Positions 21,161 through 63,907 of a stretch of DNA of 64,000 bases are shown one piece after another; position 1 is the stretch's first letter; each line of letters starts with the position of its first letter. Below the pieces are notes generated by a model that was not told where the DNA came from, ran no database searches, and was given only the letters and a program-made list of their open reading frames with translations. A program made the translations under genes and the position numbers. This DNA is from Bugulina stolonifera (taxonomy: Eukaryota; Bryozoa; Gymnolaemata; Cheilostomatida; Bugulidae), in NCBI GenBank assembly GCA_935421135.1, contig OW285187.1:21576429-21640428 (forward strand), read 5' to 3'.

Positions 21161-22060
21161 GAAGGGTAACAGTCTACATGTACTCGTATATATGCTATAG
21201 AAGGGTAACAGTCTACATGTACTCGTATATATGCTATAGAAGGGTAACAGTCTACATGTACTCGTATATATGCTATAGAAGGGTAACAGTCTACATGTAC
21301 TCGTATATATGATATAGAAGGGTAACAGTTTACATGTACTCGTATATATGCTATAGAAGGGTAACAGTCTACATGTACTCGTATATATGATATAGAAGGG
21401 TAACAGTCTACATGTACTCGTATATATGCTATAGAAGGGTAACAGTCTACATGTACTCGTATATATGCTATAGAAGGGTAACAGTCTACATGTACTCGTA
21501 TATATGCTATAGAAGGGTAACAGTCTACATGTACTCGTATATATGCTATAGAAGGGTAACAGTTTACATGTACTCGTATATATGCTATAGAAGGGTAACA
21601 GTTTACATGTACTCGTATATATGCTATAGAAGGGTAACAGTTCACATGTACTTGTATATATGCTATAGAAGGGTAACAGTCTACATGCACTCGTATATAT
21701 GCTATAGAAGGGTAACAGTTCACATGTACTTGTATATATGCTATAGAAGGGTAACAGTCTACATGTACTCGTATATATGCTATAGAAGGGTAACAGTTTA
21801 CATGCACTCGTATATATGCTATAGAAGGGTAACAGTTCACATGTACTTGTATATATGCTATAGAAGGGTAACAGTCAACATGTACTCGTATATATGCTAT
21901 AGAAGGGTAACAGTTTACATGTACTCGTATATATGCTATAGAAGGGTAACAGTTTACATGTACTCGTATATATGCTATAGAAGGGTAACAGTTCACATGT
22001 ACTTGTATATATGCTATAGAAGGGTAACAGTCTACATGTACTCGTATATGCTATAGCTTT
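21161..22060. repeat. 39-bp satellite array, about 23 copies
   Basis: Tandem 39-bp units built on TAGAAGGGTAACAGTCTACA and TGTACTCGTATATATGC. Variants (CTC/TTG, CTAC/TTAC/TTCAC) recur in blocks, suggesting multi-unit duplications. The period is divisible by three, so both strands show open frames of 200-300 codons made only of the repeat. Confidence 0.95.
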
Positions 22061-27749: not shown

Positions 27750-30987
<3,238 letters not shown>

Positions 30988-38092: not shown

Positions 38093-38164
38093 CGGACTGT
38101 GTTGGGACAGGCATTGATGGTGGGCAGCCCTGGTTGAGCAGTTTTGGAGTGTTTTGTTGTTGTG

Positions 38165-41100: not shown

Positions 41101-42268
41101 TAGGCAAGGAGTTGTATTTTATAAGGACAGACTTGTGGTACCTGGAGCTGAGAGATCTAGTGTAATAGGTGAGTTGCATAAAGCCCACCAAGGTGCTTCT
41201 AAGACCTTACAGCAAGCACAGAAGACAATCTTTTGGCCCGGAATGAAGAGACATATCACTGATCGATGCTTATCATGTGAACCCTGCAGGTCAGTAAGTA
41301 GGGACGAGAGAAAGGAACCCCTCATGAATTTTCCTATACCAAATCACCCGTTTCAAGTCATCGGCACTGATCTCTTTGAGATAACTGGTAAGTCATATCT
41401 TATGATAGTCGATTATCTGAGTAAGTGGCCCGTTGTTGTACCCTTGAAACACACCACCAGCAGAGATGTAGTGCAGGCTATGCAAGCCACATTTGCTCAG
41501 TATGGAATGCCCGAATATATTGTATCAGATAATGGCCCACAGTACAGCTCAAAGGAGTTCATGGACTTTTGTAAGGATATACAGGCCAAGCATGAAACTA
41601 GTTCACCACATCACCAGCAAGGTAATGGCCAGGCAGAACGAATGATTGGCATAGTTAAGTCCAGTATGAAGAAGAGGATCAAAAGTAATAGTGAGTGGTG
41701 GGAGGCCATTCTTGCTATTCGCAACACTCCTATTGGTGACGGCTTACTGTCCCCAGCCCAGATTCTACAAGGTAGGAACCTAAGAGATCACATAAGTCTG
41801 CCACTGAGTAATTATCAGGTACAGGGTTATGACATCGGCAAGCTGCAAGAGCAGTTAAAACAGAGGCAGTCTGTACAGAAGTTTTACTATGATAGGAGGG
41901 CTGGCCCAGATAAGACTTCCCTGATACCTGGTGATACTGTTATGTTCAAAACACCCCGTGACTGGCAGCCAGGACTAGTGTCCGGTATAGTAGGCGATAG
42001 GTCTTATTCTGTGGAAACTCCTCAAGGGCTCACGCTGAGAAGAAATAGGAAGGATGTGAGGGTAACGGGTGCACCAGTGCATGAGGATCGTGCGCATGAG
42101 CGAGCCACTCCACCAGAGGAGACTCGGGTAGCTGGGGGTTGTGGTGTGGGTGCACCTGTGGATGGTCTGTCGCGGGGGGTTTCGGGTGTTCCGGGGGTGA
42201 CTGGATCGGGGAGGCTGGTCAGGCCACCTGTTAGATTCGAAGACTACGTGATGACTGGCTGGAAGTAG
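38165..42268 (+). CDS. Gag-Pol polyprotein of the Ty3/Gypsy element
   Basis: One open frame of 1,367 codons with no gag/pol frameshift. In order: a Gag capsid-like start (WDEWKARFTRYR), two zinc knuckles (one with CX2CX3H spacing, then CSLCKKFNHFAKVC), aspartic protease (DTGAEVNVIP near 39201), reverse transcriptase (YIDDILVYG near 40086), RNase H (SVDASAHSLGAVL near 40529), the integrase HHCC finger (from 41173), and a DDE core (GTDLFE, SDNGPQY, GQAERMIG). It ends in a GPY/F-like module (WQPGLVSGIVGDRSY). An 84-bp direct duplication (38993-39076 and 39077-39160) repeats 28 residues between the knuckles and the protease. The start is the first ATG with a capsid-like sequence after it. Function: self-copying through an RNA intermediate. 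Confidence 0.96.
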   Translation: MAGIKSPKPLDFSNARERWDEWKARFTRYRSAVELDQKTPQRQVDTLLLCMGEESDTIYRQLAIPDPYDTFTIYDLTIAAFDDYFNPHSTALHHKVMFFGRIQGRDESNQAYIRDCYDLASKCQWTGLVKSDMLRVRLLAGMQDKQLSAQMQLDNNSLEEVVTKMRTKEAIQQEMKAQLDGTQQASVTVDAVDQGATAVDAIARRKYATDRKSKPIRDATDDWVRDCKYCGESHVKRRCKAYNKRCSLCKKFNHFAKVCSSNKRTDTVHVNDRKSEESDCDEYFYVTSVEHKSESFSGNTKCIEESDSDEYFYVTSVEHKSESFSGNTKWIESLLINGKSIECKIDTGAEVNVIPVQSLRSLGIERVEKSSASLTGYSGDAIPTVGRLSMGVGMPGRKAIRSRFYVRGVVRGAAESLPLLSFQTACALGLQLPTPKSIDSIQPISNPSPITTMISDIDQAKREYPKAFDGLGCVKDITMSLTLKPNAVPKTFSARQVPLAVQAAYKQELEEMQRNNVIVPDPEPSAWLNPTVIVSKPDGKVRICLNPQYLNSQLLKTQCTIPTATSIFSELKGAKYFSCLDAKSGFHQVRLDEVSSKLTSFLTPFGKFKYARLPMGLNCSPELFHQMMVKLFMHIPHVKVYIDDILVYGRNEAEHDESLRQVLAVCEQVGLTLKYEKCVIKQTTVTFLGHELSERGLKADYDKVQALHDIAVPKDQDDTQRFLGFVNYLSKFIPGLSELAKPLRELCKKGRIFSFEKPHIDAFEAIRAKAMQDITLQYYDPDKPVVLSVDASAHSLGAVLLQEGKPIEYASKSLTETQQGYSQIEKEMLAVLFGCTRFHYYLFGRHVTIETDHKPLVGLVVKDLNLLTARLATMRLCLVSYDFDLVWKPGKYMILADTLSRACPAGTGENEDLKFDPLQRICSIVLTTDSALDRYEKATAIDEELQVVYRLIQSGWPTDRKMCPERALAYWPLHDYLSCRQGVVFYKDRLVVPGAERSSVIGELHKAHQGASKTLQQAQKTIFWPGMKRHITDRCLSCEPCRSVSRDERKEPLMNFPIPNHPFQVIGTDLFEITGKSYLMIVDYLSKWPVVVPLKHTTSRDVVQAMQATFAQYGMPEYIVSDNGPQYSSKEFMDFCKDIQAKHETSSPHHQQGNGQAERMIGIVKSSMKKRIKSNSEWWEAILAIRNTPIGDGLLSPAQILQGRNLRDHISLPLSNYQVQGYDIGKLQEQLKQRQSVQKFYYDRRAGPDKTSLIPGDTVMFKTPRDWQPGLVSGIVGDRSYSVETPQGLTLRRNRKDVRVTGAPVHEDRAHERATPPEETRVAGGCGVGAPVDGLSRGVSGVPGVTGSGRLVRPPVRFEDYVMTGWK

Positions 42269-47400: not shown

Positions 47401-50400
47401 AGTATAGAACACAGGCTAAGAGATTAGAGAAGAGAGTTTGCCCTAATCATACACAGTTTCCATATAGTCTGGGATGTAAAAGCTGTGTTAAACTGTTCTG
47501 TGTGCAGTGTGCATCTGGGGCTAACCTGTGTGATGATGGTGAGTATAACCAGTATAACCAGTTTACCAAGACTACCCACTCCAGGTAAATGCGTCACAAG
47601 TTTGGAGTTGTCTCACGTTCAGTTTGAGCTAAGCAATTTCGGAGACCATAATAATACTAATTGTTGGGGTTTTACATAGTCGCTGGCTGAATTGCGTATA
47701 AGCCACATTCAAAGGACAGACAACTCCAACTGTTAATAGGCAAATTGCCAACAACTACATAAAAATTGAGTGACTTTTGAGTGATCATTGAAAATTTTTT
47801 GAAGACCAGACAACCCCAAATTGACAAAGACTGGTTGCACAGAGTTATAATTGAGTGAACAGTTGGACAAAGTCATTGTATACATGTATGTGATTGATAT
47901 AAACTGATAATCTCTCTCTCAACAATAGTATAATAATCAAATAGTAGTGGTGTGAGAGTGACCAGCGACCTGTCCATAACAATATAAAGAGTGTTAAAAT
48001 CAACTGAGTAGTTAGTTACAAGCTTCTCATGATAGGATTGAGGTTCCTGTGTTATTGTAGGTCATTTATAAGACATTCGACTTGTAATTTAGTGATTCAA
48101 TAATTCAGATATACTGTAATGTTTTTTAGTACTATTGCATACGAGAGCCGAGGGCTACGGGTATGCGAAGGGCTTGGAAGGTGGTAGAGGCCGACCAAGT
48201 GTACCTTCTGCTCATTACATAAAAGAGTGAACAGTTATGGGTGCTCTTTATAGTGTAGATTGTATATTATCTCAGAGTGTAGAGAAAGAGTATGTAACCT
48301 TAAGGGCCTAAGTCCGACGCTAGGTTCATTAGAACCCGGGATCGGCCTAAGCCTAAGGGGTGGATAGGTGTGCTTAGCCTAGGATGAGGTGAGTTCGAAC
48401 CGTACTGAATCCTAAGGATTCTCAGGGAGAACTACCCGCCTAAAGAGTAAGCGTCTGTAGGTTGAGTTAGGAGATGTTGCTTTATTCAAGCGCAATCAAC
48501 AACTGATTCACTGCCTTATATACATAACAAACTTCCGGCAAAAAGGGACGACATGGTGTCGGTTAACCGACATGGGGTTGGCTCCGGAACTTACACAACA
48601 ATATGTCTGGTTCCGCCCGACTCGGCCATATGAAAAGGTCGGCCATTGCACAAAATGTGCTAACAATAGGTAGAAACATGTCAGTAGTATTACCAGTGCA
48701 GATCTGCACAGACATTTCCCCACGGATTCAGCCAATCACAGAGCCGTATTTCGGATTCTGACCAATCAGGAGCCACCACCCTCCGTGACCTTCGTCAAGG
48801 ACACCGGAACTAGCCAAAATTTCCCCACGACCTTGCCAAGGTCGCGCTCCGGAACTGAGCGTTTCCTCCTCAAAAAATTTCCTAACTGCGAACGAAAAAT
48901 CTCCAAAAATTTTCCTAACCGCGACCGAAAAATCTCAAAAAATAATCCTAACCGCGAACGAAAAAAATCTCCAAAAAAAAACTTACCTCGAATGAAACGT
49001 CCCCGTCTTCGATTCTCTTAAAACTCTCCAACCTCTCCCTCGCGCCTCTTCTCTCCACGCCTCTCGAATGATCGCCACCGACTCCGTCCCCCGCCTCTCC
49101 TATTCCAAGCCCCGCCCTCAAACCTCGGAATCTCTGCCCCGACCCTTTGACCAAACGACTGTGGACGAGGGGTGGGAGCCGGCCGCCAGCCGGGTCCCTC
49201 CCGCCCGGGACCCGTCGCGTTCTTCCCGACTATCTCCCCGGAGTTTTGAAATTCGTATCACCATTTTTTTGGGTTTCGATTAATAATACGTATATTTTAT
49301 CGTATTCCTTAGAAACTATATAATGATAGAAAGTATAGAATAGAAAAAAAATGGAAAGTATAGAGTAGAAAAAAGTACATAACTGAAACTATATAGAAAA
49401 GCATAATATCGTATTCGCTAGAAAGTATAAATGCGTTTATTTTGTTTGAAATTATAAATTTAAAACTATAAATATAGAAGCGAAAGGTGTATAAATAAGA
49501 TAGTAATATATAAAAAAATATGGAGAGTGCCCTGAGACCCTTACTCTGAGGTGAGCTCTCTTGTTTTCTGATCGTAGGCGTGAGCTTTACGTTTAAAACG
49601 ATCTACTAGCTCACTCCTACAACCAGAAGCGATACACCTCAGAGCATGACTATGATAAAAATAAACTTTAGCTCTATATAAATCTATTAGGCATTCTCGA
49701 TTGAGATAGGTCTCAGGCAACTCTCCATTGTCTGACACGGATGTTGATGTAGTGCACGGAGAGGGTGGTGACTGTGCTGGTGGTGGTGGTGATGGAGAAT
49801 GACATATAGGTGATTGGGGTGATGTGGTAGGTGAGGTGGATATGGGGGTTGGAGAGTCGTTATTACAATGCACGTGTAAGCCGAATGGAGATGGAGAATG
49901 ACTTTCACGCACTGGAGGTAGAGGTTGGAGAGAAGGTGAAGTCGATGCAGTCATTTGTTTGATAGGAGTGTGTGGTGGACAGTTTATAGATGAGTCTTTG
50001 CTTTTTGGCGAAGGGAAAAGCATTTCTAGAACCTCATCCTCATAATTAGATCTTTGAGGAGAAGTAGGAGGAGGAGGAGGAGGAACTATTTGACATGGAG
50101 GAGAAGAGGGTGATTGTGATGCAGCTTGAGGTTCTGTTGAGGCGAGGTAATGGTCTACTAAATATTCATTGTAATTTTGTGAATTGTCTTGAGGTTGAGG
50201 AGATGATGATTGAGAATGAGGAGGTGATAATGATTGAGATCTGATTAGAGGTGAGGAGGGAGTAGTGTTAGATGAGTAAGATGTACTGGTAGAGGCAGCG
50301 ATGGATGTAGTAGTGATGGAGGTGGTAGTGGTGGTGGTGGTGGGCTTGTTAGTGGAGAGTTGTTTAAATCGTCGAAATGGTTGGTAAGAAACCATACCAC

Positions 50401-53400
50401 ACGGGATTTTACATCCTCCACAAAAGATAGGGGTGAGAGTGTTAGGCAAGGTTATGAAAGGTGGGGGGGGCGGGATGTGGAAATGTTAGAGTTGGAGACC
50501 AATCCCGAGTTATGATAGTAGTGATGGTGTGTGCACAATCCATCAAGCTATCCGTGTCAGACAAAAATCTCTCCGCATGTGACAAAGGATGATCCTTTTC
50601 ATCATACGGAGATTTGGATAGGTGCACGTGCATGCGTTCATCATTTACCCGAGTCTGTAAGCATGTACAGACTCGGAAAAGAAAATGTTGCTGCACGTGC
50701 TCCTTTATCCGACAACCTATTTTTTTTTTACATAATGGACAGAGCTTAGATGAATCACATTCTTTTAGGTATTCTTTTAACTTTTCTTGATTTTCTTTTT
50801 TCATGAATATGTAGTATTTAAGAGACTTCTTCTCTTTTGTATATCTTGTAATACCTAAAAAACCATTAGAATTGTTTCATTTTTTATGCTAGATATTTAC
50901 ATAGTTACAACTAATTATTTATACTACATATTTACATAGTTATAACAAAGTTTTAAACATCTCTAGATATTTAAATCAACTCACCAATCTCTTCACCACT
51001 TATAGATACTTCTTTGAGGAGATTTCATTCTTTTTCGCTCAATACCCTCCCTCTATTGTTATTTAGTTTAGCCTGGTAAAGAGAAAATGAAAAAAAATGT
51101 GAATAAAAAGTTCAAAAAATTAATGAAGAAAGATTAGAAAATATAATGGAGACAGTAGAGAGTAATGTATACAGCTATATATTCAAAACGATAGGGTAAA
51201 AACACTTACTTAAGCTACCACCTTCATATTTTGCTTGATTGAAGCAATCGATTCAATGTTTTTGTCATTGCAATAAGCCTATAATTAAAAGATAAAAAAA
51301 ATGTCAAAGAAGTGAGAATACAATAAATAAAAATGTAGAGCAAAAAATCTTATCATTCAGAGAAAATTACTAGAAAAAATTACTAGAAAATTACTAGAAA
51401 AATAAGGTAAATATTACTCACCATTGTTGTAGTTCAGTATATTCACTAGACTTTTGGACTTCTAATTTTTTAAAGAAAGTAGAACTTTTTTCAATACAGA
51501 TTTACCTTTCTTCAACTTTAGTTCTTGGAATGAGGCCCAACCAGAAAAACTTTTGTTTTTATATGTTTTTGCTCAAAAATTTCTTAACCAATCAGCTAAA
51601 AGGGGCATTATAAGGTTAAAAAGGCATTTTTAAGGTTAGGACTTTTTTTAGAATTATTAAGAGGTAAGAGGTAGATTTTGAAGGTTGGAGGGGACGGAGA
51701 GGGTCGGAGGGGGGTCGGAGGAGGGTGTTAGGGGGTCGGGGAGTGGTGTTAGGGGGTCGGAGGGGGTTGGAAAGGGGTGTTAGGGGGTCGGAGAGGGGTG
51801 CTAGGGGGTCGGAGATGGGTTTTAGGGGGTCGGAGAGGGGTTTTAAGGAGTCAGAGGGGGTTGGAGAGGGGTTTTAGGGGGTCGGAGAGGGGTTTTAGGG
51901 GGTCGGAGAAAGGTTTTAAGGGGTCGGAGAGGGGTTTTAGAGGGTCGGAGGGGGTCGGAGAGGGGTTTTAAGGGGTCGGAGGGGGTCGGAGAAGGGTGCT
52001 AGGGGGTCGGAGAGGGGTTTTAGGGGGTCGGAGAGGGATTTTAGGGGGTCGGAAGGGGTCGGAGAAGGGTTTTAAGGGGTCGGAGGGGGTCGGAGAGGGG
52101 TTTTAGAGGGTCGGAGGGGGTCGGAGAGGGGTTTTAAGGGGTCGGAGGGGGTCGGAGAGGGTTTTAAGGGGTCAGAGAGGGGTGCTAGGGGGTCGGAGGG
52201 GGTCGGGGAGGGGTTTTAGGGGGTCGGAGAAGGGTTTTAGGGGGTCGGAGAGGGGTTTTAGAGGGTCGGAGGGGGTCGGAGAGGGGTTTTAGGGGGTCGG
52301 AGAGGGGTTTTAGAGGGTCGGAGAGGGGTGAAACTACCTCCCACCCCTCTCCAAACCCTCCCACCCCTCTCTAGTCCTCTCAGGTCTTAGTGAGATAAGT
52401 TTGAGAGGTAAGAGAGATTTCTGCTATAAAACTCCCACCCCCTCCGACCTCCTCCCACCCCACTCCGACCCTCTCCCACCACCTCCGACCCTCTCCCACC
52501 ACCTCCGACCCTCTCCTACCCTCTCCCACCACCTCCGACCCTCTCCCACCCTTCTCCCACCACCTCCGACCCTCTCCCACCTCTCTCCCACCACCTCCGA
52601 CCCTCTCCTACCCCTCTCCCACCACCTCCGACCCTCTCCCACCCCTCTCCCACCCCCCTCCGACCCTCTCCCACCCCCTCCGACCTCCTCTCACCCCACT
52701 CCGACCCTCTCCCACCACCTCCGACCCTCTCCCACCACCTCCGACCCTCTCCCACCACCTCCGACCCTCTCCCACCCCTCTCCCACCACCTCCGACCCTC
52801 TCCCACCCCCCTCCGACCCTCTCCCACCCCCTCCGACCTCCTCCCACCCCACTCCGACCCTCTCCCACCACCTCCGACCCTCTCCCACCCCTCTCCCACC
52901 ACCTCCAACCCTCTCCCACCCCCTCCCACCCTCTCCCACCCCCTCCCACCCTCTCCCACCCCCTCCCACCCCCTCCGACCTCCTCCCGCCCCACTCCGAC
53001 CCTCTCCCACCTCTCTCCCACCCCCCTCCGACCCTCTCCCACCCCTCCGACCTCCTCCCACCCTACTCCGACCCTCTCCCACCACCTCTGACCCTCTCCC
53101 ACTACCTCCGACCCTCTCCCACCCCTCCCCCACCACCTCCGACCCCCATCCCACCCTCTCCCACCCTCTCCGACCTCCTCCAACCCTCCTCCGACCCCCT
53201 CCGACCCTCTCCAACTCTCCTCCGACCCCCTCCAACCCTCTCCGACCTCCTCCAACCCCCTCCGACCCTCTCCGACTCTCTCCGACCTTCTCCGACCCCC
53301 TCCGACCTAGGAGGGTCCTCATAGACTAGGGGTGAGGTGGGTAATCACCCCATGATGATGTATATTCAGCATGAGAGCTAGAAAATCAGTACGAAAACAG

Positions 53401-53969
53401 TTTCGACCAATAAAATCAAAGCGTGTACATACACAAGTACACACCCACTCTGTATAAAAGAGCAAGCATTTGCTAAGTTTCATCAGCATCCACACTCCAG
53501 TGTAAGTGTGACAACAACTCACTACAACTCTTGCAGCAGAAGATTCTTCTACTACACTCAGATCTTCTACTACACTCAAATCCTCTACTACACTCACTCA
53601 ACATGAGTTCTCAAGACATGAGTTCGGACAACTTTTTCTTTTCATCGACGCCACCACCGCCACCACCACTTCGCAGCGGTGACACAGACGGGCTGATGAG
53701 TTTAACTGACGCTGAGCTGGAGCAGGTGATCGAGTACGAAGAGGAGAGTCAGAATAGACCCAGAGAAGTTGAGGAGTTGAGGGCGGAGATGGCGAGACGG
53801 GAGCGCTTTCGAAGGAGGCTTGATATTCCAGCCGCGACTGGTAGAAGAGAGTTATCATCAATGCTACAGCGTCCACCACCCACCAGCTCTCCAGCGCCTC
53901 GCGGTGTTATAGAGCAAGGAGAGCACTCGCAGGCGCAGCGTCCAACAACCCCCATCAAGAATAGTATTG

Positions 53970-54010
<41 letters not shown>

Positions 54011-57000
54011 GGTGTTGTTAGACATCGTAAAAGGAAAGCGACTACAATCAATGAGGAAAGTGGTGAGGAAGATGATGACACGCTTATACTCTCGTCCGAA
54101 GAAGATGGTGTTGTCATGGCGGCGAAAGTTGTGGACAAGAAAAAGAAAGAGAATGACGGGACATCGAGTAAGAAGGTTGGAATTAAACGTGGCTGTGCAG
54201 TTACTTGGATGGTAAAGGCAAGCGTGTACACTCCAAGATGCACATCCCCTCAAGGCACGCTCCAAAGTGCGGAGTCACCAATGATAATGGAAAGGCAAAC
54301 AAGGGCGACTCCCTCTCGCCAAGAGTTATGGTGTACTTGGGAGAGAAGGCAAGGGCTGATGGTAAGCACTCCTTCCGACATCTAGAATTCGTGTGCACTC
54401 CCACCCACGCGACGATGAAGAAGACGGCTGCCGATCTGAGAAAAAAGAGTGTAGAAGAGTTGCAAGACTACTTCAGGGTGAGGACACTCTCCATTCTTCC
54501 CAAGGGGAGTGTCCTGGTTGTGACGGCGATTCGAACCTTGGCAGTCGGCTTCAGTGTGGGAGGTGAGGCTATGAAAAAGATGGTGACTAGTGGTGTGGCG
54601 ACCTTCGAAACCATCGTAGACGGTAGAGAGGTTCATGGAGAGGTATTTCTACCTCAGCGCTACATCAGTCAGCTGGAGGGTAACCTCCCAGGCGTTGTAA
54701 TATACAAGGGTGTCAAGAAGAATAAGACTAGAAGTCGTGAGTATTACGACTGTTGCGTCTTGGATCGGGTGGGCAAAGAGCAGCTACTCACCAAGACTAT
54801 GAGCTGAGTTGTACTCTCACCTCTCCTCATGACTCACTAGACACCTCACCAACTCATTGGTGATATTTTTTCCCATGCATTTTGTAGATAAGTAGCGATC
54901 CATTGACATTATTATTGTTTTCTATATTCTTGTAGAAGGTCTCCGCCTCAGATTCAGAGAGTTTGACAGTTGTAGCCTGAAAATTGTGCAATAAACGTTT
55001 AACACTCACTACATTTCACCATATTATTCTAGCCCTCCCGCTTTTTCTAACTCTGTCATTTTCCATATACTTGTAAGAGGTCTCTGCCTCAGATTCAGAG
55101 GGTTTGCCAGTTGTAGCCTGAAAACTGTGCAATAAACGTTTTCACACTCGCTATATTTCGCTATATTATTTCAGCTCCATTTCCAACTCGGTTGACCTCC
55201 CCTCTGATTGGTCAATTGTATTTGCGAGGTTATGTCCTTTATAAATGTATTTACAAATGCATTAGTATCACCACTTCATCGACGAAGCTTTCAGTCCAAT
55301 GGTGGTGCTCGCGGAGTGCGCGTGTATGGTATGTCATTGACACTTATCCAGACTTTGTTTCCTAGGAATAGATGGGCGAGCTGGGATGATTGGAGTGCGT
55401 TCAGATCACTGACAACAGAAGAACTCTACGTTTCGCGTAGATACTTTTGGAAATCGGATCATCGAAGTAATAAGAGTGCAAAGGTCTTCCAGCATCTTAA
55501 CCATGGTGATCACAATGCTGTCGCTTTCGCTTTACTCGTTGCTGAGAGTGGCAATAGTGTGGCCGTGCGTGACAAAGAGGGGCGGACGGTGCTGCACGCA
55601 CTGCTACTTTCCGCTAAAGAGGGGAGTAAAGATGTGGCATCTCTTGCTTTTCACACCAATCCTAGTATGGTGGGCATGACGGATAAAAATAATGGTCAAA
55701 ATCCATACCATTTGATAGCAAAGATCGGAGATGAGAGCTTGCTACGTCGATTATGCTCTCCAATCACACCTCAACAGCTGCACCGTCCACATTTCATCAT
55801 CTCACCGTGTGCACTACCCTCTCCAGCCATCAATGAGCTAGATAAAGAGGGAAAGGCTCCCTTACATTACGCATTCGAATACGACTTGACCGAGAGTGGG
55901 TGGAGTATGAGATTAAGCGGAATGATGTTAGATTTTCGAGGTGTTGACCCCAACGTTAGACAGAGTGGTAGTGGAAATACTATTGGACACATGGCAGCAT
56001 TGTACGAGTTTCACGTGGCGACTGCACGATTTCTCGCACAAGGTCTCTCGCCAAGAGTAACCAATGAAGAAGGAGTATCCGTGTTAGACCTGTGTCCACT
56101 CGTTGACTTGACATTCGTTCTACAACATAGCTACGAGAAGGGGAGGGGTAGTCTGTAGCATTGATAAAGTGGATGAGTGCACGCACACTCTTAAGCGACT
56201 ACTTTGAAATAATTATATCTTTTATAAATAAAGTTTTGTAGATAAATAATTCAGCACACGCATTAGCACTCCATTGACATTATTGATTTTTTCTGTATAT
56301 ATTCTTGTAAGAGGTCTCTGCCTCAGATTCAGAGGGTTTGTCAGTTGCAGCCTGAAAACTGTGCAATAAACATTTAACACTCACTATATTTCAATATGTT
56401 ATTTTAACACTAAATAACAATAGAGGGAGGATATTGAGTGAAAAAGAAAGAAATCTCCTCAAAGAAGTATCTATAAGTGGTGAAGAGATTAGTGAGTTGA
56501 TTTAAATATGTAGAGATGTTTAAAACTTTGTTATAACTATGTAATTTATCATAGTCATGCTCTGAGGTGTATCGCTTCTGGTTGTAGGAGTGAGCTAGTA
56601 GATCGTTTTAAACGTAAAGCTCACGCCTACGATCAGAAAACAAGAGAGCTCACCTCAGAGTAAGGGTCTCAGCGCACTCTCCATATTTTTTTTATATATT
56701 ACTATCTTATTTATACACCTTTCGCTTCTATATTTATAGTTTTAAATTTATAATTTCAAACAAAATATACGCATTTATACTTTCTAGCGAATACGATATT
56801 ATGCTTTTCTATATAGTTTCAGTTATGTACTTTTTTCTACTCTATACTTTCCATTTTTTTTCTATTCTATACTTTCTATCATTATATACTTTCTAAGGAA
56901 TACGATAAAATATACGTATTATTAATCGAAACCCAAAAAAATGGTGATACGAATTTCAAAACCCCGGGGAGATAGTCGGGAAGAACGCGACGGGTCCCGG

Positions 57001-60000
57001 GCGGGAGGGACCCGGCTGGCGGCCGGCTCCCACCCCTCGTCCACAGTCGTTTGGTCAAACGGTCGGGGCGGAGATTCCGAGGTTTGAGGGCGGGGCTTGG
57101 AATAGGAGAGGCGGGGGACGGAGTCGGTGGCGATCATTCGAGAGGCGAGAGGCGTGGAGAGAAGAGACGCGAGGGAGAGGTTGGAGAGTTTTAAGAGAAT
57201 CGAAGACGGGGACGTTTCATTCGAGGTAAGTTTTTTTTTGGAGATTTTTTTCGTTCGCGGTTAGGATTATTTTTTGAGATTTTTCGGTCGCGGTTAGGAA
57301 AATTTTTGGAGATTTTTCGTTCGCGGTTAGGAAATTTTTTGAGGAGGAAACGCTCAGTTCCGGAGCGCGACCTTGGCAAGGTCGTGGGGAAATTTTGGTT
57401 AGTTCCGGTGTCCTTGACGAAGGTCACGGAGGGTGGTGGCTCCTGATTGGTCAGAATCCGAAATACGGCTCTGTGATTGGCTGAATCCGTGGGGAAATGT
57501 CTGTGCAGATCTGCACTGATATTACTACTCATGTCGTCTGTAAATGTGAGCTAAATCCATAAGTTCGGCCACGTGGTTACAATATAAAGTGGCAAAAAGA
57601 CTCTAATAATTCACAATCAAGTAAGGATAGAAAGACAATTACTAAATAAGTATAAATGTGGGAAAAACCAAGTTGCAATAGAATGTAATTCCAAGGCTTG
57701 ATTGCTAGTACAGACATGTATATAATACACGCAGTGGATAAGGTAATGAATGCATGGATAATATGGATAAACAATGTGATTAAATGTCAGCTATTATATG
57801 GTTAAGTGACTAGCCAAGGGAGGCTAGCTGTTACGATTCTCTTAGAGCTGTCCAGGAGGGATAACATTCGCTTAGGTACTAGGGCCTTTTTAACGGCATC
57901 TGCGTATGTGATCCTGGGGGTGCTGTGGACCGGCGGTTTCATCACAATACTAATATGAGTTTCCTATCAATTTCCCTGATGTAACCTCAACCTTGTTACC
58001 GACACAGGGTTAGCTCCCTGCCGTAACTGTTGTGACCTCACAGGAAGTAGACCGTATCTGGTCAGTCTACGTGTTACTCATGCTAACCTGGTCACCTGGA
58101 CCTATGCCAGGCTATGTGGTGGGGGTCCGTGGCAGCAGGCAACTGTGAGGGGGGAGCCTGGTTGTAAAATATAGTTAAAAAACTGGCTCTCTAAACAAAG
58201 TTTTTGAAATGCCAAGTCATACATGCATGGAAAGCTGAATGGTAACTTGTGAGTGATCTAGCTCTATAATTGTGGTTCTTCATTACAGTAAAAGGTTGAA
58301 AATTTTTGACTCATGGTACACTCTTTTAGATTTGTTATATTCTCTTGTTATAATTGTTAATTATTACAGTAAAAGGCAGAGTATTGGTGAATTGCAGTAT
58401 ACTCTTATATTTGTTATTATTGTAATTGTTTTCATGATTTCTGCAGGTTCATCCTATAATTGCTGTTATGGTTTATACAGGTTTATTCCATCAGCTGATC
58501 AATATAGATGAGTTGATAAAGGAGCTAATAACAGCAGATGAACTGTTTACTACAGAGGATAAACTATCAGCTCTGTTTAAGCTAGTCTCTAGAGCTGTAA
58601 CAGACTTTGATACGGAAACAGATCAGTCGTTGGATATTCTACATAAACAACGTGACCAACAGGTATGATTTGATAATATAACTTCTTTCTTTGACCACAA
58701 TACCCAGTAGTATTGGAAATGAGTAGAGAGAGTAGACAACTTCTGCTGTCAGATCAACTTAGCATTCACTGTACAACCAGCTCAGGTCTGCTGTAATTTA
58801 GGTATTATTACTCGCTCATTAGTACTTTAATAATTTTATCTTGTTTAGTTGGCTGAAGTGAGAATAAAGTATGAAACACTTGAGACAGAGTTCTTGGCCA
58901 ACAGAAGGAAGAATAAAACAGAACTGACCAGATATATGGAGGAGGAAGTAGGAACTATCTGGTCTAATCTGAGTAAGAGTAGAATGAAGATAGAAGCACA
59001 GCTTAGACAAAACCATCAGGTGTGTACCTACAGTGTGTACATTATATATTTATGTATACATACACAATATATATTTACTAGAACATGCTTAAGGTACCAA
59101 GAAATAGGGAAATGGCACAAATTTATCAATCTTTTACACTTAGTTTTGACTTTTTAATGATGTTAGCCAAGTAATACTGTAATGTACGACTGTGGGTAAC
59201 ACACAGCCTACACACCAATTGTATCAAATGACTCCTACCAGCCTGAATAGGGTTGTGATAGTTATGTGTGTTAATTCAAATGCATAGGGCAGAGATCTGG
59301 CCCTAGGCCCAACTGTGTATTCCACAACTGGACTAATGTGTTCCGGCTCTCATAAGGGGGGGGTCTGGAACACACCCAGTACCGTGGTGGAGTAGGCAGA
59401 AGAACTTATCTAGCAAGTGAATAACCAAGTTCAGAGAGATGGACACTGTTCAAAAGTTTATTGACAATTGACAACTGAACTTCAACTGAGAAACTGCTGT
59501 CCTTATATAGGCATTTTAGCCACTCCCACCTGAGAGGGGGGCTGGGCTGGGGTCGGCCCTACGCGTATACCACAAACATATAATAACCATGTTGTTAATT
59601 CTCAAAATTAGTAACATAAAATTCTATCAGCTGGATTTCAATAAGCTAAGTATGGTTCATTGTCCATCAGCCCCTTTTACTGGAGTTCGGTTTGCCTGTC
59701 ATCTGGTCCTTACCCATGAGTTGAGTCTTATCCAGGATAGGCCCCCTTGATGTCACATCGCCACAATAATAATTTACCAGGATACATGCTACAAGTGTTT
59801 ATACTGATTTTATAATATAAACTTCTGTTTATGGCTGCTAGTAGGGAGAATGTGACATCGAGTTTAGAATTGCAGCATTTGCCTCAATGTTTTATTTTGC
59901 AGCTTTATTATCATTTTGGTAGGATAGCTAAAAGGGTTAGTTATTTATATGTCAATGTAACTAGAATTGTTATTTTGTATTATATTATAAAAGTAGGTGT

Positions 60001-61988
60001 CATTCAGAAATTTTAAGCTGAGACAACGTGATTTTAACCCGTCTTTTAACCTATCAGGGAAATATTGGGTACTATTTACATTGTACACTACCCGACACAT
60101 GTTATAATTCTAGAAACCCAGGTTATATTGTTTCTACTCCTTCTACCCCTTACTTGAAGTTATGATGTACAGCATATACATGTTTGTTTATTTCTAAGAT
60201 GGTAAGTTTGTTACATACAGGTGGACATTGTACAGGGATATGCTGAGATTAAAGATAAAATACAGAAACTGTTATCAGTTGAGATACCTAGACTAGAGTT
60301 GTGTGATGTGATGACTTTAGAGGTCAAAGGTATGAGTTTCATGGCTTTATCATCCATATTGTAATGTAGACATGCAATCCATACATTTGATAGATACACT
60401 TACATGGTACATGGTACTTCATGTAGTAATTATGACTACATTCCCCTCAGCCCTTGTGTGTATAATCAGAGACCTGTCATGTATTATATATACAATGTAC
60501 GCGTGAGTGTAGTCATAGCATCCTGTATATGGTGATAGTGTAGTGAGGTTTATTTGATCCTCATATAAGGATAACATAGTAACTAATAGTGTTGTCTGGA
60601 GCAGGTTTCTGTCAATACTTTAAAACTGATCCAATATCAATACTTTCCACTACTCGCCTGGCATGGCCTACATCCTATGTCCGATGCCAATATCCATTAC
60701 TATGATTTCCAATCCTGCTCTACTCTCTTTGATTAGAAGTTATATTACAATGGGTGAGTTAAAACTGAGAGATCAAATGTTCAATTTCGATACCCTATAG
60801 TATTGTATTAGATGTTGGCCTCAAACAGTATTGGTCAATAGTTAATTGACCTCAAACTTGGTCTGGAGTATTTGCAACAGTTTCGCATCATATATTATAT
60901 CATAACAGGAGAAAGGAGAGATATCGAAGTAGAAGTTGTGCCCACAACAGACATATCTATTAGTTTAGATGAAGGAATGGCTACTTCTATTCTATCTAAA
61001 TCTCTTACACTGGTACGAACTGTCGATGTATCTAATAATTGCCTAGTTGTATGCACACACCAGGGTATTACTTATGTTGGACTGACTGGTGAAGGAGGGA
61101 TAGATAGAGTGAATAAGGACTATAGTATCACCAAGTATTTTATTGCTGCTCGGGATTCTGTGAATACAATCACAGCATATAAAGATAGACTCTATGTACT
61201 TGTACGTGGGAACCCTTGGACAGTGAATGTGTATGATCTCTCTGGGAAGCTGATCACTAGTTGGAATCATAGTGATACTAATGACAGTACTAACAAACTT
61301 GCTATTGTTGATGGTGAAGTTCCAATCCTAAGCAGAACCAGCAAAGAACTAATTCTATATTCTCTCACTGGCGAGGTAATAAAACGCTTTTCCTGCCCTT
61401 TACTTAGTAATAGTCAGACAAAGATTTGTGCAGCAGACAGACATTGCGTTGTTGTTTCTGATTACGGATCTTCTCAAGTGTTTAAGTTATCCTTGACAAC
61501 AGAACAAGTTATCTGGATATCTAAAGTTGTACCCAATCCACAAGGTGTGACCTGCTATAGAAGCAGATATATCCTTGTGACTAATTCAAGCAGTGAAACT
61601 ACCATCTGGATCCTCGATGTTAAGACAGGTAAGTAGTATTAGGTAGATCATAGGTGTGAAATACTTTCTTACAGGTTATACTGTAATAGGATGTGTTAGT
61701 AGATATTGTTATTATTGTACTACCATGTCATGCCACCTACCCAACATAGCAGTGTTACGAGAAGCAGACATGGTGGATAGATTGTCTATAAATTATGTTA
61801 TTATTTCTATTTGTAAAAATTTGACTCAACATCTTCATAATATGATCCTTACAGGTAGACTACTGCTCAAGTTAACTGATCCTACTAACAGAGGGAGTAG
61901 CAGTGTATATGACCTACATGTCTCTGGTGATACTCTGGTTGTTCCAAGATACTTTAATAAGAAGGTTCTGTTCTATCAGATTAAATAA
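44495..61988 (+). CDS. RING / B-box / coiled-coil / beta-propeller protein (TRIM-NHL-like)
   Basis: Exons 44495-44658, 46213-46369, 47355-47538, 58481-58662, 58849-59019, 60221-60329, 60909-61628 and 61855-61988 are all GT-AG and in phase (606 aa). RING C3HC4: C13, C16, C30, H32, C35, C38, C51, C54. Two Cys/His B-box-like modules follow (CDICIKRG...CTLCRKLFC; CPNH...CKSCVKLFC), then a coiled coil (~170-320). The C-terminal ~280 residues hold repeated blades such as LYVLVRGNPWTVNVYDLSGK and IWILDVKTG, as in NHL-type propellers. Family role: E3 ubiquitin ligase with the propeller binding substrate or RNA; the substrate here is unknown. Intron 3 (47539-58480) is 10.9 kb because of inserted elements. 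An earlier acceptor at 58446 would give a stop, so 58481 is used. The TAA is also the first base triplet of a 29-bp satellite. Confidence 0.88.
44937..45362 (+). mobile_element. tRNA-derived SINE with conserved centre and (AAAAC)n tail
   Basis: The head carries an A-box-like GGCACAGTTGGTGG and a B-box-like GAGTTCAAGCCCC. A central block includes GATCAGGGCGTATAAATAAT and CACGCACGTTAAAGATCC, followed by GGTGGCAGGTTGATGTAGTG, and it ends in AAACAAAACAAAACAAAACA. Inserted in intron 1 of the RING gene. Confidence 0.85.
45513..46082. mobile_element. Tc1/mariner-type MITE, 570 bp
   Basis: Left end TACAGTGATGTGAAAAAGTT then TAAGGACG; right end CGTCCTTAAACTTTTTCACA then GCACTGTA, a 28-bp inverted repeat with one mismatch. 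TA at both borders fits TA target choice. The interior has no transposase. In intron 1 of the RING gene. Confidence 0.88.
46767..47039. mobile_element. MITE of the AGGTGTC family, copy 2
   Basis: TAGGTGTCTTCGCGACCTC and GAGGTCGCAAAGACACCTA are inverted with two mismatches. The GC-rich interior stands out from the AT-rich surroundings. In intron 2 of the RING gene. Confidence 0.75.
48110..48668 (-). mobile_element. LTR-like dispersed repeat, copy 2
   Basis: Homologous to 26289-26706. On the minus strand a TATATAAGG box (near 48520) is followed about 35 bases later by AATAAA (near 48482), the promoter and poly(A) order of an LTR R region. The 8.8-kb element begins 26 bases to the right. Confidence 0.55.
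48694..49659 (+). repeat. Left terminal inverted repeat
   Basis: Near-identical to the complement of 56545-57518, with a handful of substitutions and one 7-base indel (GCCTCTC). The outer part has a perfect palindrome GTGCAGATCTGCAC. About three to four direct repeats of CCTAACCGCGACCGAAAAATC type (48873-48985) follow, then a CpG-rich block (49040-49230). The innermost ~120 bp code for the C-terminus of the left gene. Confidence 0.93.
49437..49442 (-). terminator. Poly(A) signal of the left gene
   Basis: TTTATT on the plus strand is AATAAA on the minus strand, about 100 bases past the stop. In the right TIR the matching site reads AATATA, so the signal is lost there. Confidence 0.6.
49541..51424 (-). 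CDS. Left cargo gene: zinc-finger, Pro/Ser/Thr-rich protein (interrupted)
   Basis: Unrecognised. Splice sites predict minus-strand exons 51461-51422 (ending in an ATG, 51424-51422, in good context), 51278-51222, 51072-50985 and 50854-49541. The last encodes a C2H2-like finger (CPLCKKKIGC..H...H), then a second Cys cluster (CGGCKIPC), a long T/S/P-rich linker, and a conserved basic C-terminus (RSELVDRFKRKAHAYDQKT) that also lies in both TIRs. Two breaks are visible: an in-frame TGA at 51027-51025 in exon 3, and a frame change at a run of eight G (50463-50470). An ATG at 50804 starts an uninterrupted 120-codon frame, which overlaps the 302-codon frame (ATG at 50449) by 8 bases. It may be a decaying gene, or the G-run may be a sequencing error. 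A nuclear DNA-binding role is inference. Confidence 0.5.
51556..51592 (-). promoter_or_regulatory. Left-gene promoter: TATA and CCAAT boxes
   Basis: On the minus strand, TATAAAAA (51563-51556) is preceded by an inverted CCAAT (51592-51588). Transcription would start near 51530 and run leftward. It mirrors the promoter at 53407-53460. Confidence 0.6.
51687..52332. repeat. G-rich minisatellite, left half of the central array
   Basis: Units of about 21 bp (GGGGTCGGAGAGGGGTTTTA) with shorter GGGGTCGGAGG variants, about 30 copies. Repeated G3-G5 runs separated by TTTTA and TCGGAGA would favour G-quadruplexes on the plus strand. Confidence 0.92.
52432..53310. repeat. C-rich minisatellite, right half of the central array
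   Basis: Units of about 20 bp (CTCCCACCACCTCCGACCCT). Read on the minus strand they give GGGTCGGAGG, the core of the left array, so the two halves face each other across a 100-bp spacer. Long stop-free frames here are repeat artefacts. Confidence 0.92.
53407..53460 (+). promoter_or_regulatory. Right-gene promoter: CCAAT and TATA boxes
   Basis: CCAAT at 53407-53411 and TATAAAAG at 53453-53460. The expected start is near 53485 (TTTCATCAGCATCC), giving a leader of about 120 bases before the ATG at 53603. A CTACTACACTCA repeat lies in the leader. Confidence 0.65.
53603..54807 (+). CDS. Right cargo gene A: acidic/basic nuclear-type protein (frameshifted)
   Basis: Unrecognised. The ATG at 53603 opens a frame with a Pro run, a coiled-coil-like charged segment (ELEQVIEYEEESQ...EELRAEMARRERFRRR), a D/E run coded by GATGAT repeats (53970-54008), a basic patch VRHRKRKAT and a second acidic/Lys region. 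From about 54187-54205 the likely coding frame shifts by one base and continues to a TGA at 54807. That part is a compact folded-looking domain (KMHIPSRHAPKCGV; VMVYLGEKARADGKHSF; GSVLVVTAIRTLAVGF). Together they would span about 400 codons. The break is one indel: a mutation, a sequencing error or a programmed shift. The nuclear-localisation-like patch and acidic tracts suggest a nucleic-acid or chromatin role, which is inference. Confidence 0.55.
54919..55020 (+). terminator. 3'-end motif, copy 1
   Basis: Contains TCTCCGCCTCAGATTCAGAG, GTTGTAGCCTGAAAATTGTG and AATAAA (54990-54995). It lies about 110 bases after gene A. Confidence 0.7.
55060..55160 (+). terminator. 3'-end motif, copy 2
   Basis: Contains TCTCTGCCTCAGATTCAGAG, GTTGTAGCCTGAAAACTGTG and AATAAA (55131-55136). 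CTCTG and CAGAG can form a short stem. No gene lies between copies 1 and 2. Confidence 0.7.
55232..56158 (+). CDS. Right cargo gene B: ankyrin-repeat protein
   Basis: 308 codons, uninterrupted, ATG at 55232 to TAG at 56156-56158. Seen: an N-terminal basic segment, then ankyrin-type units: VRDKEGRTVLHALL, DKNNGQNPYHLIAK, NELDKEGKAPLHYAFE, QSGSGNTIGHMAALYE and VTNEEGVSVLDLCP, each with the G-x-TxLH-type turn in variable form. Ankyrin repeats bind proteins; the partner is unknown. An inverted CCAAT (ATTGG) precedes the ATG closely. A poly(A) motif copy follows about 140 bases after the stop. As the only unbroken gene in the element, it may be under selection or simply young. Standalone ankyrin genes occur in large DNA viruses and symbionts; that link is inference. 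Confidence 0.75.
   Translation: MSFINVFTNALVSPLHRRSFQSNGGARGVRVYGMSLTLIQTLFPRNRWASWDDWSAFRSLTTEELYVSRRYFWKSDHRSNKSAKVFQHLNHGDHNAVAFALLVAESGNSVAVRDKEGRTVLHALLLSAKEGSKDVASLAFHTNPSMVGMTDKNNGQNPYHLIAKIGDESLLRRLCSPITPQQLHRPHFIISPCALPSPAINELDKEGKAPLHYAFEYDLTESGWSMRLSGMMLDFRGVDPNVRQSGSGNTIGHMAALYEFHVATARFLAQGLSPRVTNEEGVSVLDLCPLVDLTFVLQHSYEKGRGSL
56290..56392 (+). terminator. 3'-end motif, copy 3
   Basis: Same motif as at 54919 and 55060, with AATAAA at 56365-56370, placed after the ankyrin gene. Confidence 0.7.
56405..56544 (+). pseudogene. Inverted fragment of the left cargo gene (exon 3 and intron 3 start)
   Basis: Matches the complement of 50935-51070. The homology begins at the exon 3 start and runs through the donor into the intron. 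It then joins directly to the TIR copy of the gene's C-terminus at 56545, so about 1.27 kb present on the left (49660-50930) is absent here. At 56449-56451 this copy has AGA where the left gene has TGA. Confidence 0.8.
56545..57518 (-). repeat. Right terminal inverted repeat
   Basis: Inverted copy of 48694-49659. The inner end holds the last ~36 codons of the left gene in sense orientation. A GC box (GGGCGGGGC, 57088-57096) and a splice donor (CGAG|GTAAGT, after 57225) face outward toward the host gene's downstream exons. Confidence 0.93.
57519..58446. other. Rest of RING-gene intron 3
   Basis: 57519-57780 is AT-rich. 57800-58160 is clearly richer in G and C (for example GGTGCTGTGGACCGGCGGTT and GGGGGTCCGTGGCAGC) and looks like part of a dispersed repeat whose family I cannot name. 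Confidence 0.35.
59285..59765 (-). mobile_element. LTR-like repeat, second family
   Basis: On the minus strand it starts TGTGGCGATGTGACATC (59765 down). CTATATAAGG (near 59500) is followed by AATAAAC (near 59460) about 45 bases later: TATA then poly(A) signal, as in an LTR. No internal coding region and no clear target duplication; probably a solo LTR in intron 5 of the RING gene. Confidence 0.5.
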
Positions 61989-63898
61989 TCAGGTATATTA
62001 TCTGTATATTCTAGTAATCAGGTATATTATCTGTATATTCTAGTAATCAGGTATATTATCTGTATATTCTAGTAATCAGGTATATTATCTGTATACTCTA
62101 GTAATCAGGTATATTATCCGTATATTCTAGTAATCAGGTATATTATCTGTATACTCTAGTAATCAGGTATATCATCTGTATATTCTAGTAATCAGGTATA
62201 TTATCTGTATACTCTAGTAATCAGGTATATTATCTGTATATTCTAGTAATCAGGTATATTATCTGTATACTCTAGTAATCAGGTATATCATCTGTATATT
62301 CTAGTAATCAGGTATATTATCTGTATACTCTAGTAATCAGGTATATTATCTGTATACTCTAGTAATCAGGTATATTATCTGTATACTCTAGTAATCAGGT
62401 ATATTATCTGTATACTCTAGTAATCAGGTATATTATCTGTATATTCTAGTAATCAGGTATATTATATGTATACTCTGGTAATCAGGTATATTATCTGTAT
62501 ATTCTAGTAATCAGGTATATTATATGTATACTCTGGTAATCAGGTATATTATCTGTATATTCTAGTAATCAGGTATATTATCCGTATATTCTAGTAATTA
62601 GGTATATTATCTGTATATTCTAGTAATCAGGTATATTATCTGTATATTCTAGTAATCAGGTATATTATCTGTATATTCTAGTAATCAGGTATATTATCTG
62701 TATATTCTAGTAATCAGGTATATTATTTGTATACTCTAGTAATCAGGTATATCATCTGTATATTCTAGTAATCAGGTATATTATCTGTATACTCTAGTAA
62801 TCAGGTATATTATCTGTATACTTTAGTAATCAGGTATATTATCCGTATATTCTAGTAATCAGGTATATTATCTGTGTACTCTAGTAATCAGGTATATTAT
62901 CTGTATACTCTAGTAATCAGGTATATTATCTGTATACTCTAGTAATCAGGTATATTATCTGTATATTCTAGTAATCAGGTATATTATCTGTATACTCTAG
63001 TAATCAGGTATATCATCTGTATATTCTAGTAATCAGGTATATTATCTGTATACTCTAGTAATCAGGTATATTATCTGTATACTCTAGTAATCAGGTATAT
63101 TATCTGTATACTCTAGTAATCAGGTATATTATCTGTATACTCTAGTAATCAGGTATATTATCTGTATATTCTAGTAATCAGGTATATTATCTGTATACTC
63201 TAGTAATCAGGTATATCATCTGTATATTCTAGTAATCAGGTATATTATCTGTATACTCTAGTAATCAGGTATATTATCTGTATACTCTAGTAATCAGGTA
63301 TATTATCTGTATACTCTAGTAATCAGGTATATTATCTGTATACTCTAGTAATCAGGTATATTATCTGTATATTCTAGTAATCAGGTATATTATATGTATA
63401 CTCTGGTAATCAGGTATATTATCTGTATATTCTAGTAATCAGGTATATTATATGTATACTCTGGTAATCAGGTATATTATCTGTATATTCTAGTAATCAG
63501 GTATATTATCCGTATATTCTAGTAATTAGGTATATTATCTGTATATTCTAGTAATCAGGTATATTATCTGTATATTCTAGTAATCAGGTATATTATCTGT
63601 ATATTCTAGTAATCAGGTATATTATCTGTATATTCTAGTAATCAGGTATATTATTTGTATACTCTAGTAATCAGGTATATCATCTGTATATTCTAGTAAT
63701 CAGGTATATTATCTGTATACTCTAGTAATCAGGTATATTATCTGTATACTCTAGTAATCAGGTATATTATCCGTATATTCTAGTAATCAGGTATATTATC
63801 TGTGTACTCTAGTAATCAGGTATATTATCTGTATATTCTAGTAATCAGGTATATTATATGTATACTCTGGTAATCAGGTATATTGTCTGTATATTCTT
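61986..63898. repeat. 29-bp satellite, about 66 copies, with higher-order repeat
   Basis: Unit TAATCAGGTATATTATCTGT then ATAYTCTAG. The first TAA is the stop codon of the RING gene. A variant series (TATATG, CTCTGG, CCGTAT, TAATTAGG) recurs 928 bp (32 units) later: TAATTAGG at 62595 and 63523. Confidence 0.97.
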
Positions 63899-63907
63899 GT
63901 AATATTT

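What the first reader, a model, noticed from the sequence alone, without database searches (positions are those of the whole stretch)
48694..57518. Mirror-symmetric 8.8-kb element with ~1-kb inverted ends and outward-facing genes
The sequence shows long TIRs, a central pair of facing G-rich and C-rich arrays, two CCAAT/TATA promoters firing away from the centre, a spliced zinc-finger gene on one side, and an acidic nuclear-type gene plus an ankyrin gene on the other. No enzyme of a known transposon or virus group is visible. This could be a new non-autonomous large transposon, or an endogenous virus-like element whose replication genes lie elsewhere.
Basis: partly seen in the sequence, partly recalled or inferred. 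Interest (0 to 1): 0.92.

Follow-up and report, generated by a model that had tools for sequence, protein, structure and literature searches.

The report
One piece of a segmented Maverick
The 8.8-kb mirror-like element belongs to a Maverick/Polinton virus-like family whose replication genes, capsid-and-integrase genes and accessory genes sit on separate elements with the same ends, so it looks like one segment of a split DNA-virus genome, an arrangement I did not find described for this group.

Summary
The element is 48683-57529, with ~0.98-kb terminal inverted repeats (TIRs), flanked by a 6-bp target duplication (CATGTC). Its terminus (AGTAGTA...) recurs across the genome; 20 of 21 elements read at both ends have perfect 6-bp duplications. 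(AGT)2 ends plus 6-bp duplications are Maverick hallmarks (PMC8097293).

Elements with this TIR fall into kinds with different genes. A (window, 7 copies): proline-rich zinc-finger gene, acidic gene, predicted ssDNA-binding gene, ankyrin gene. B (13 copies): integrase, capsid proteins, protease, mostly a packaging ATPase. P (7 copies): PolB plus another version of the ssDNA-binding gene. None of 41 paired elements shows both PolB and ATPase. TIRs are ~97-99% identical across kinds; 21 of 22 elements read hold a facing G-/C-rich array. One A element carries a B end. A second lineage also seems to keep PolB away from capsid genes (capped lists, ends not read).

Best reading: a Maverick split into trans-complementing, separately integrating segments; the window holds a slightly damaged accessory segment. 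Shared ends and gene partition are shown; virions and co-packaging are inferred. Closest precedent: segmented bidna-like viruses.

The parts
48677..48682 (.). left target-site duplication CATGTC
48683..49659 (+). left TIR, terminus AGTAGTATTACCAGTGCAGATCTGCACAG
49541..50804 (-). Cys/His-rich, proline-rich gene ('zinc finger'); one 440-aa open frame in the C2 copy, broken into two frames (50442-50804 and 49541-50449) here; its last 39 codons lie inside the TIR and recur at the right end
   Evidence: (weak Cys_rich_CWC, 0.0011, below cut-off)
50932..51067 (+). inner block of the inverted repeat (partner 56409-56544), separated from the TIR by the zinc-finger gene
51555..51600 (-). promoter-like inverted CCAAT and TATA, - strand
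   Evidence: sequence; not tested
51650..52330 (+). G-rich half of the central array
52432..53307 (+). C-rich half of the central array; 51034-53307 aligns with a B element at 78.6%, and 52432-54198 (this half plus nuc1) with the P element at 76.5%
53407..53459 (+). promoter-like CCAAT and TATAAAA, + strand
   Evidence: sequence; not tested
53603..54190 (+). acidic gene 'nuc1' (MSSQDMSSDNFFF...)
   Evidence: 94% of the reference covered
54187..54807 (+). C-terminal 70% of 'nuc2', predicted RPA-like tandem OB-fold ssDNA-binding protein; N-terminal part missing in this copy
54895..55031 (+). first of three copies of a 3'-UTR-like block with AATAAA (others 55065-55178, 56296-56406)
   Evidence: sequence
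55208..56158 (+). ankyrin-repeat gene, open frame
56545..57529 (-). right TIR (inverted)
57530..57535 (.). right target-site duplication CATGTC

Best explanation
The window element is an accessory/replication-support segment ('A') of a Maverick/Polinton whose gene set is divided over at least three separately replicating and integrating linear dsDNA segments with the same TIRs: A (zinc-finger/proline-rich protein, ssDNA-binding protein, ankyrin protein), B (ATPase, integrase, capsid proteins, protease) and P (PolB and ssDNA-binding protein). Likely working: PolB from P starts replication at the common termini of every segment; the ssDNA-binding protein from P and A coats displaced strands; integrase from B inserts each segment with a 6-bp target duplication; capsid proteins and ATPase from B package all segments, recognising common TIR or array signals. 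Shown: shared ends, separate target duplications, clean gene partition among the copies examined, family membership of the B and P proteins, one A/B recombinant. Inferred: protein-primed replication in trans, packaging, the ssDNA-binding role, ankyrin and zinc-finger proteins as host-interaction or control factors. The window copy itself is slightly damaged.
For: Termini and TSDs: 20 of 21 perfect. Ends match Maverick (AGT)2 motifs with 6-bp TSDs. Gene partition in 23 loci read in pieces (7 A, 13 B, 1 P, 1 C, 1 mosaic): tblastn at E 1e-6 finds no B gene in A, P or C except a protease tail in one A, and no PolB in A, B or C. Over 41 pairs made from the 100 listed termini: 11 with ATPase, 7 with PolB plus nuc2, 18 with nuc2 only, 5 with none, 0 with PolB and ATPase together (absence rests on capped hit lists). 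TIRs intermix between kinds: A/P 99.0%, A/A 98.7%, A/B 97.8% mean identity. G/C array in 21 of 22 elements, only its G half in C6:252135. A element C5:4389479 begins with 1.14 kb that matches the end of a B element at 97.8%, the inner 360 bp being 120 protease codons, and still has a perfect TSD. Integrase rve 4.4e-9 and chromodomain 9e-7, A32-like ATPase 2.2e-6, DDE and protease residues in place, double-jelly-roll capsid fold, PolB relatives in several animals. nuc2 A vs P: dN/dS 0.25. Second lineage: 4 of 98 nuc2 sites within 20 kb of one of 138 ATPase sites; over both lineages 2 of 40 PolB sites within 25 kb of one of 94 capsid sites, ~0.96 expected by chance (one contig length guessed).
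Against: No virion, episome or transcript data. Searches of the own genome score only the best candidates, so a monopartite copy could be missed. Second lineage: no element was read whole; B2 termini were not read; a nuc1-like frame and another array lie beyond its protease, so a diverged polymerase further on is not excluded; the ~220 pairs of variant termini mostly have unknown contents, and the listed places do not flank the main second-lineage PolB/nuc2 sites on C1, so shared ends there are not shown. Capsid genes of 9 of the 13 B copies show near-neutral pooled dN/dS (0.85, non-independent pairs), as expected after insertion but no proof of function. nuc2 fold model is of moderate confidence (pLDDT 64.7, TM-scores ~0.2).
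Confidence: 0.66

Rival explanations
1. A, B and P are non-autonomous derivatives of one ordinary monopartite Maverick, each having lost different genes and keeping the TIRs; the parent is extinct, unsampled or missed here.
For: Vertebrate Mavericks carry PolB and morphogenesis genes in one element; other PolB families exist in this genome (11 PF03175 matches at 10 loci); hit lists are capped.
Against: No parent with these TIRs among 41 paired elements; kinds are complementary without overlap of core genes rather than random deletions; A, B and P each have several near-identical copies; PolB and capsid genes are also apart in a second lineage at 67-68% DNA identity for PolB.
Confidence: 0.2
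2. B plus P form a two-segment helper, and A (and the nuc-nuc elements) are satellites that use its TIR recognition, polymerase and capsid.
For: No core gene was found in A; A's ssDNA-binding gene has a counterpart in P; nuc-nuc and near-palindromic elements look like defective derivatives.
Against: A has two genes not seen in B or P, the ankyrin frame being open over 299-316 codons in 4 of 7 copies; 7 of 7 A elements hold all four genes in whole or in part.
Confidence: 0.3
3. A purely intracellular transposon family whose members move by supplying each other's enzymes; no particles are made.
For: Only integrated copies seen; IMG/VR gave no confirmed match with the capsid profile or the terminus, and one remote hit with the PolB profile.
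Against: Open frames for capsid, penton-like, ATPase and protease are kept in many B copies; second-lineage ATPase (~80%) and capsid (72%) copies are open and nearly all of one score; capsid relatives occur on other public contigs.
Confidence: 0.2
4. Assembly artefact or segmental duplication of one inverted region.
For: Long inverted repeats and arrays are hard to assemble.
Against: 21 elements on 10 contigs, 20 with a perfect TSD.
Confidence: 0.01

Closest known systems
Maverick/Polinton elements (vertebrate Mavericks, PMC8097293; section 7 read, passages of the rest)
   Same: (AGT)2 ends, 6-bp TSD, long TIRs; integrase, A32-like ATPase, double-jelly-roll capsid, penton-like, protease and PolB genes, taken over the family as a whole
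   Different: Core genes sit on separate elements with the same TIRs instead of one 12.7-24.6 kb element; central G/C array; acidic/ssDNA-binding gene pair on P and A
Segmented bidna-like viruses: Vesanto virus (PMC8363768, passages) and Bombyx bidensovirus (PMC4061559, passages)
   Same: Segmented linear DNA genome, PolB of Polinton kin, inverted repeats; sequence similarity of terminal repeats between many putative Vesanto segments is reported
   Different: ssDNA viruses with segments of 3.3-6.5 kb and, in the Bombyx virus, a parvovirus-like capsid; here Maverick capsid genes, integrase and integrated elements of mostly 8-13 kb
Adintoviruses (PMC11071296, passages)
   Same: rve integrase with C-terminal chromodomain, Hexon/Penton genes
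   Different: [quoted passage not shown] the PolB here has C2H2 zinc-finger and weak Vsr-like matches
Polydnaviruses of wasps (recalled; PMC2646287 seen only in search listings)
   Same: Many integrated segments, ankyrin genes
   Different: Different virus origin; circular packaged segments; no PolB or TIR system of this kind

Membership tests
Maverick/Polinton | (AGT)2 or (AG)3 end motif | tested here: met
   AGTAGTA at both ends of the 21 elements read (the search pattern required it); Maverick end motif from PMC8097293
Maverick/Polinton | 6-bp target-site duplication | tested here: met
   20 of 21 perfect, the other with one mismatch
Maverick/Polinton | TIR of 46-1447 bp | tested here: met
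   ~650-980 bp
Maverick/Polinton | rve integrase, DDE triad | tested here: met
   On B elements; not found in the window element
Maverick/Polinton | PolB | tested here: met
   On P elements; motifs present, split over two frames in the copy read; Pfam match below cut-off, homologs strong
Maverick/Polinton | double-jelly-roll major capsid protein | tested here: met
   On B elements; Foldseek E 1.9e-17 to iridovirus capsid, 8.1e-14 to mavirus capsid
Maverick/Polinton | core genes together in one element | tested here: not met
   0 of 41 paired elements with PolB and ATPase hits (capped lists); 0 of 22 typed elements read in pieces
Segmented bidna-like viruses | several segments with similar terminal repeats, PolB on one of them | tested here: met
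   if the integrated elements are segments
Segmented bidna-like viruses | parvovirus-type capsid protein and SF3 helicase | tested here: not met
   Capsid is double jelly-roll; no helicase family above its cut-off among 20 proteins scanned
Segmented virus in general | segments packaged in particles | not testable with these tools
   sequence only

The most novel reading that the evidence does not exclude
A segmented double-jelly-roll DNA virus: a Maverick whose genome is three or more linear dsDNA segments with near-identical TIRs and a common central array, each endogenised on its own. PolB and capsid genes appear to stay apart in two lineages of one probably animal host, with exchange of segment ends, so segmentation would be an old, stable trait rather than a recent break-up.
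Probability: 0.45. Interest if true: 0.93.

Novelty: new variant of a known kind. Interest (0 to 1): 0.86.

Why it matters
Mavericks are described as single-element genomes (PMC8097293). A split Maverick would show how monopartite double-jelly-roll viruses can become segmented, would parallel the segmented bidna-like viruses with their Polinton-derived PolB, and would make that question testable in one genome with dozens to hundreds of integrated segments. It also warns that 'non-autonomous' Mavericks without polymerase or capsid genes may be true segments. Seven paper searches showed no report of a segmented Maverick in the titles and abstract starts listed, nor in the passages I read of PMC11071296, PMC11071308, PMC8097293, PMC8363768 and PMC4061559; the library holds only open-licence PubMed Central papers.

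Tried and rejected
Rejected: new unrelated transposon group (ends and partners are Maverick); segmental duplication or assembly artefact; the zinc-finger gene being spliced (one open frame in the C2 copy).

Led nowhere: IMG/VR scans with the capsid profile (39 pattern matches, none confirmed), PolB profile (one remote 29% hit) and terminus (none). PHROGs gave nothing for capsid, penton-like, ATPase and protease, transposase families for the integrase and an endonuclease for PolB. PDB sequence searches gave nothing of use for the capsid and weak Vsr endonuclease matches for PolB. Rfam on the window: none. A stretch after the B2 protease was tested as a possible TIR and proved to be a one-sided gene flank. 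The TSD column was off by 2 bp for most rows because of a fuzzy pattern; one search replaces it. In one search the protease row is nonsense (a stop sign inside the extract) and was dropped. The host was not identified (an animal is likely from the gene content; a sponge is only my guess).
Full report
Observation. Window 48683-57529 is bounded by ~0.98-kb inverted repeats, 99% complementary in ungapped blocks, and by the duplication CATGTC. The centre holds facing G-rich and C-rich arrays. The main genes run outward. The window lies at G000:C1:21576429-21640428 in a 235-Mb, 27-contig genome.

Copies. A 1,007-bp TIR query gives 54 matches, 40 of 55 candidates scored; its outer 178 bp gives 40 matches, 97-100% identical, 40 of 62 candidates scored. 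The 26-bp terminus pattern with up to 3 mismatches matches 414 + 414 times against 0 + 0 for the reversed control; only the first 100 places are listed, 95 of them without mismatch. Of 21 elements whose two ends I could read, 20 have a perfect 6-bp duplication and one (C11) has one mismatch. Within-element TIR identity over the aligned parts is 93.3-99.8%. Vertebrate Mavericks have (AGT)2 ends, 6-bp duplications and TIRs of 46-1447 bp (PMC8097293, section 7; passages).

Kinds. Reading 22 elements and one mosaic in pieces: 7 A elements (window included) carry nuc1, nuc2, the zinc-finger/proline-rich gene and the ankyrin gene, in whole or in part; 13 B elements carry the capsid-integrase set, two of them without the ATPase and its neighbour gene; one P element (C5:1560162-1572166) carries a C2H2 zinc-finger frame, PolB in two frames, and nuc1/nuc2; one C element has nuc1/nuc2 on both sides and is near-palindromic. 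Six further PolB elements with paired termini were found by coordinates only, making 7 P elements; a further PolB copy has one listed end (C9:3322056). Over 41 pairs made from the 100 listed termini: 11 ATPase, 7 PolB + nuc2, 11 one nuc2, 7 two nuc2, 5 none (two of these are 40-bp palindromes, two are the B elements without ATPase, one is untyped); none has both PolB and ATPase. 10 left and 8 right ends in the list stay unpaired, some probably because the partner was not listed.

Proteins. B: rve integrase 4.4e-9 with chromodomain 9e-7, Pox_A32 2.2e-6; D82-D142-E177, Walker A and B, protease His/Asp/Cys motifs; capsid model pLDDT 80.6, Foldseek hits to iridovirus, PBCV-1, Sputnik and mavirus capsids; 16 capsid relatives at 24-72% identity on unnamed public contigs. 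The penton-like and PX-like labels rest on my recall of motifs and gene order; Pfam gave nothing for them. P: PolB has a weak PF03175 match (1.1e-4, below cut-off) and 365 relatives, 38-55% identical in the 120 listed, including lancelets, sea stars, sea cucumbers and an anemone. A and P: for nuc2 one relative was found (48%, among 1854 candidates); its model (pLDDT 64.7) matches RPA ssDNA-binding domains in all 5 hits with E up to 0.001, with low TM-scores, so the role is a lead. nuc2 of A and P differ by 54 synonymous changes at 179 sites and 55 replacement changes at 595 sites, dN/dS 0.25; nuc1 0.39; the ankyrin gene among 4 A copies 0.22-0.40 on few changes; the capsid gene among 9 B copies 0.85 pooled.

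Common cis parts. TIRs of all kinds intermix in a tree of 43 ends; mean identity A/A 98.7, A/P 99.0, A/C 99.2, A/B 97.8, B/B 97.1%; one end (C6:9409737, right) is an outlier at ~76%. The array region of A aligns with that of a B element at 78.6% over 2.4 kb; the C-rich half plus nuc1 aligns with P at 76.5%; a 381-bp flank inside the right TIR is 98.7% identical between the window and P. So termini are more alike between kinds than the arrays or the shared genes, as expected if all are copied by one replication system. The array is found in 21 of 22 elements, only its G half in C6:252135.

Exchange. The A element C5:4389479 begins with 1.14 kb matching the end of a B element at 97.8%; the inner part holds 120 protease codons not found in the other 6 A elements; its duplication is perfect. 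It is a recombinant that integrated as a unit. The right end of the window element repeats the last 39 codons of the zinc-finger gene of its left side. At C9:3535500-3549100 a second-lineage B sequence runs into a first-lineage B sequence.

Second lineage. ATPase at 79-80% identity: 138 of 150 scored sites, 262 candidates. Capsid at 72%: 82 of 94 scored, 268 candidates, nearly all with the same score and open 461-aa frames, a sign of recent spread. nuc2 at 42-45%: 98 of 134 scored, 365 candidates. PolB at 67-68% DNA identity: 31 of 40 scored, 557 candidates. Of the 40 PolB sites of both lineages, 26 have a listed nuc2 within 12 kb and 1 has a listed ATPase within 20 kb, outside its own terminus; 2 lie within 25 kb of a listed capsid gene against ~0.96 expected (the length of C7 was guessed). 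4 of 98 nuc2 sites lie within 20 kb of a listed ATPase. A pattern made to exclude first-lineage ends gave 219 + 226 places against 7 + 9 in the control, many of the 100 listed being paired ~9.7 kb apart; by eye two pairs hold a listed PolB and one a listed nuc2. Most of these pairs have unknown contents, and the main PolB/nuc2 sites of the second lineage on C1 are not inside listed pairs. The ends of B2 were not read; a 570-base piece shows a nuc1-like frame (my reading of the sequence) and another tandem array beyond its protease. Whether B2 and its PolB elements share ends is open.

Mechanism. Common TIRs point to one PolB acting on all segments; the integrase, found on B alone, would have to act in trans, since A and P have perfect duplications but no integrase was found in them; packaging by B's ATPase and capsid is inferred. 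The window copy has a broken zinc-finger frame and a deletion across nuc1/nuc2; copies with these frames open exist.

Verdict. A Maverick-family element by its ends, but not an ordinary Maverick: the defining 'core genes in one element' was tested and not met. It works like a segment. New variant of a known kind.

Noticed in passing
G000:C6:2762518-2762557, C11:4387311-4387350 (also C1:14505550-14505589, C1:20953015-20953054): Two Maverick-type termini overlap head to head in a 40-bp stretch: element ends with nothing between, perhaps mini-insertions or joined-end products.
   Followed up: no
G000:C5:4389479-4399617 (L013:249-1389): A-type element with a B-type end including 120 protease codons at 97% identity: a segment-end recombinant with a perfect TSD.
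   Followed up: partly
82 listed capsid sites genome-wide, e.g. G000:C1:14513523-14514866: Second-lineage capsid proteins in at least 82 copies, nearly all of the same score and with open frames: a recent burst.
   Followed up: partly
L047 (G000:C9:14282780-14283349): nuc1-like frame convergent with the protease of a second-lineage B element, followed by a different tandem array.
   Followed up: partly
G000:C1:12828897 and nine other loci: PolB matches to PF03175 (11 matches, 10 loci), none within 25 kb of a listed capsid gene; relation to the PolB studied here not worked out.
   Followed up: no
G000:C9:13553235-13572337 and C5:5950521-5980197: Elements of 19.1 and 29.7 kb between paired termini, presumably with insertions; contents of the inserts not worked out.
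   Followed up: no
G000:C1:29218210-29224090: 5.9-kb element with exact first-lineage termini and none of the genes searched for.
   Followed up: no
window 38144-42268: Open 1374-aa retroelement polyprotein: RT, RNase H, integrase; gypsy-type by recall.
   Followed up: no
window 61986-63903: 29-bp tandem repeat, 66 copies, 94% matches; also a 39-bp repeat of 23 copies at 21158-22056.
   Followed up: no
window 30124-30987: Frame with an ion-channel pore domain, Ion_trans_2 1e-14, probably host.
   Followed up: no
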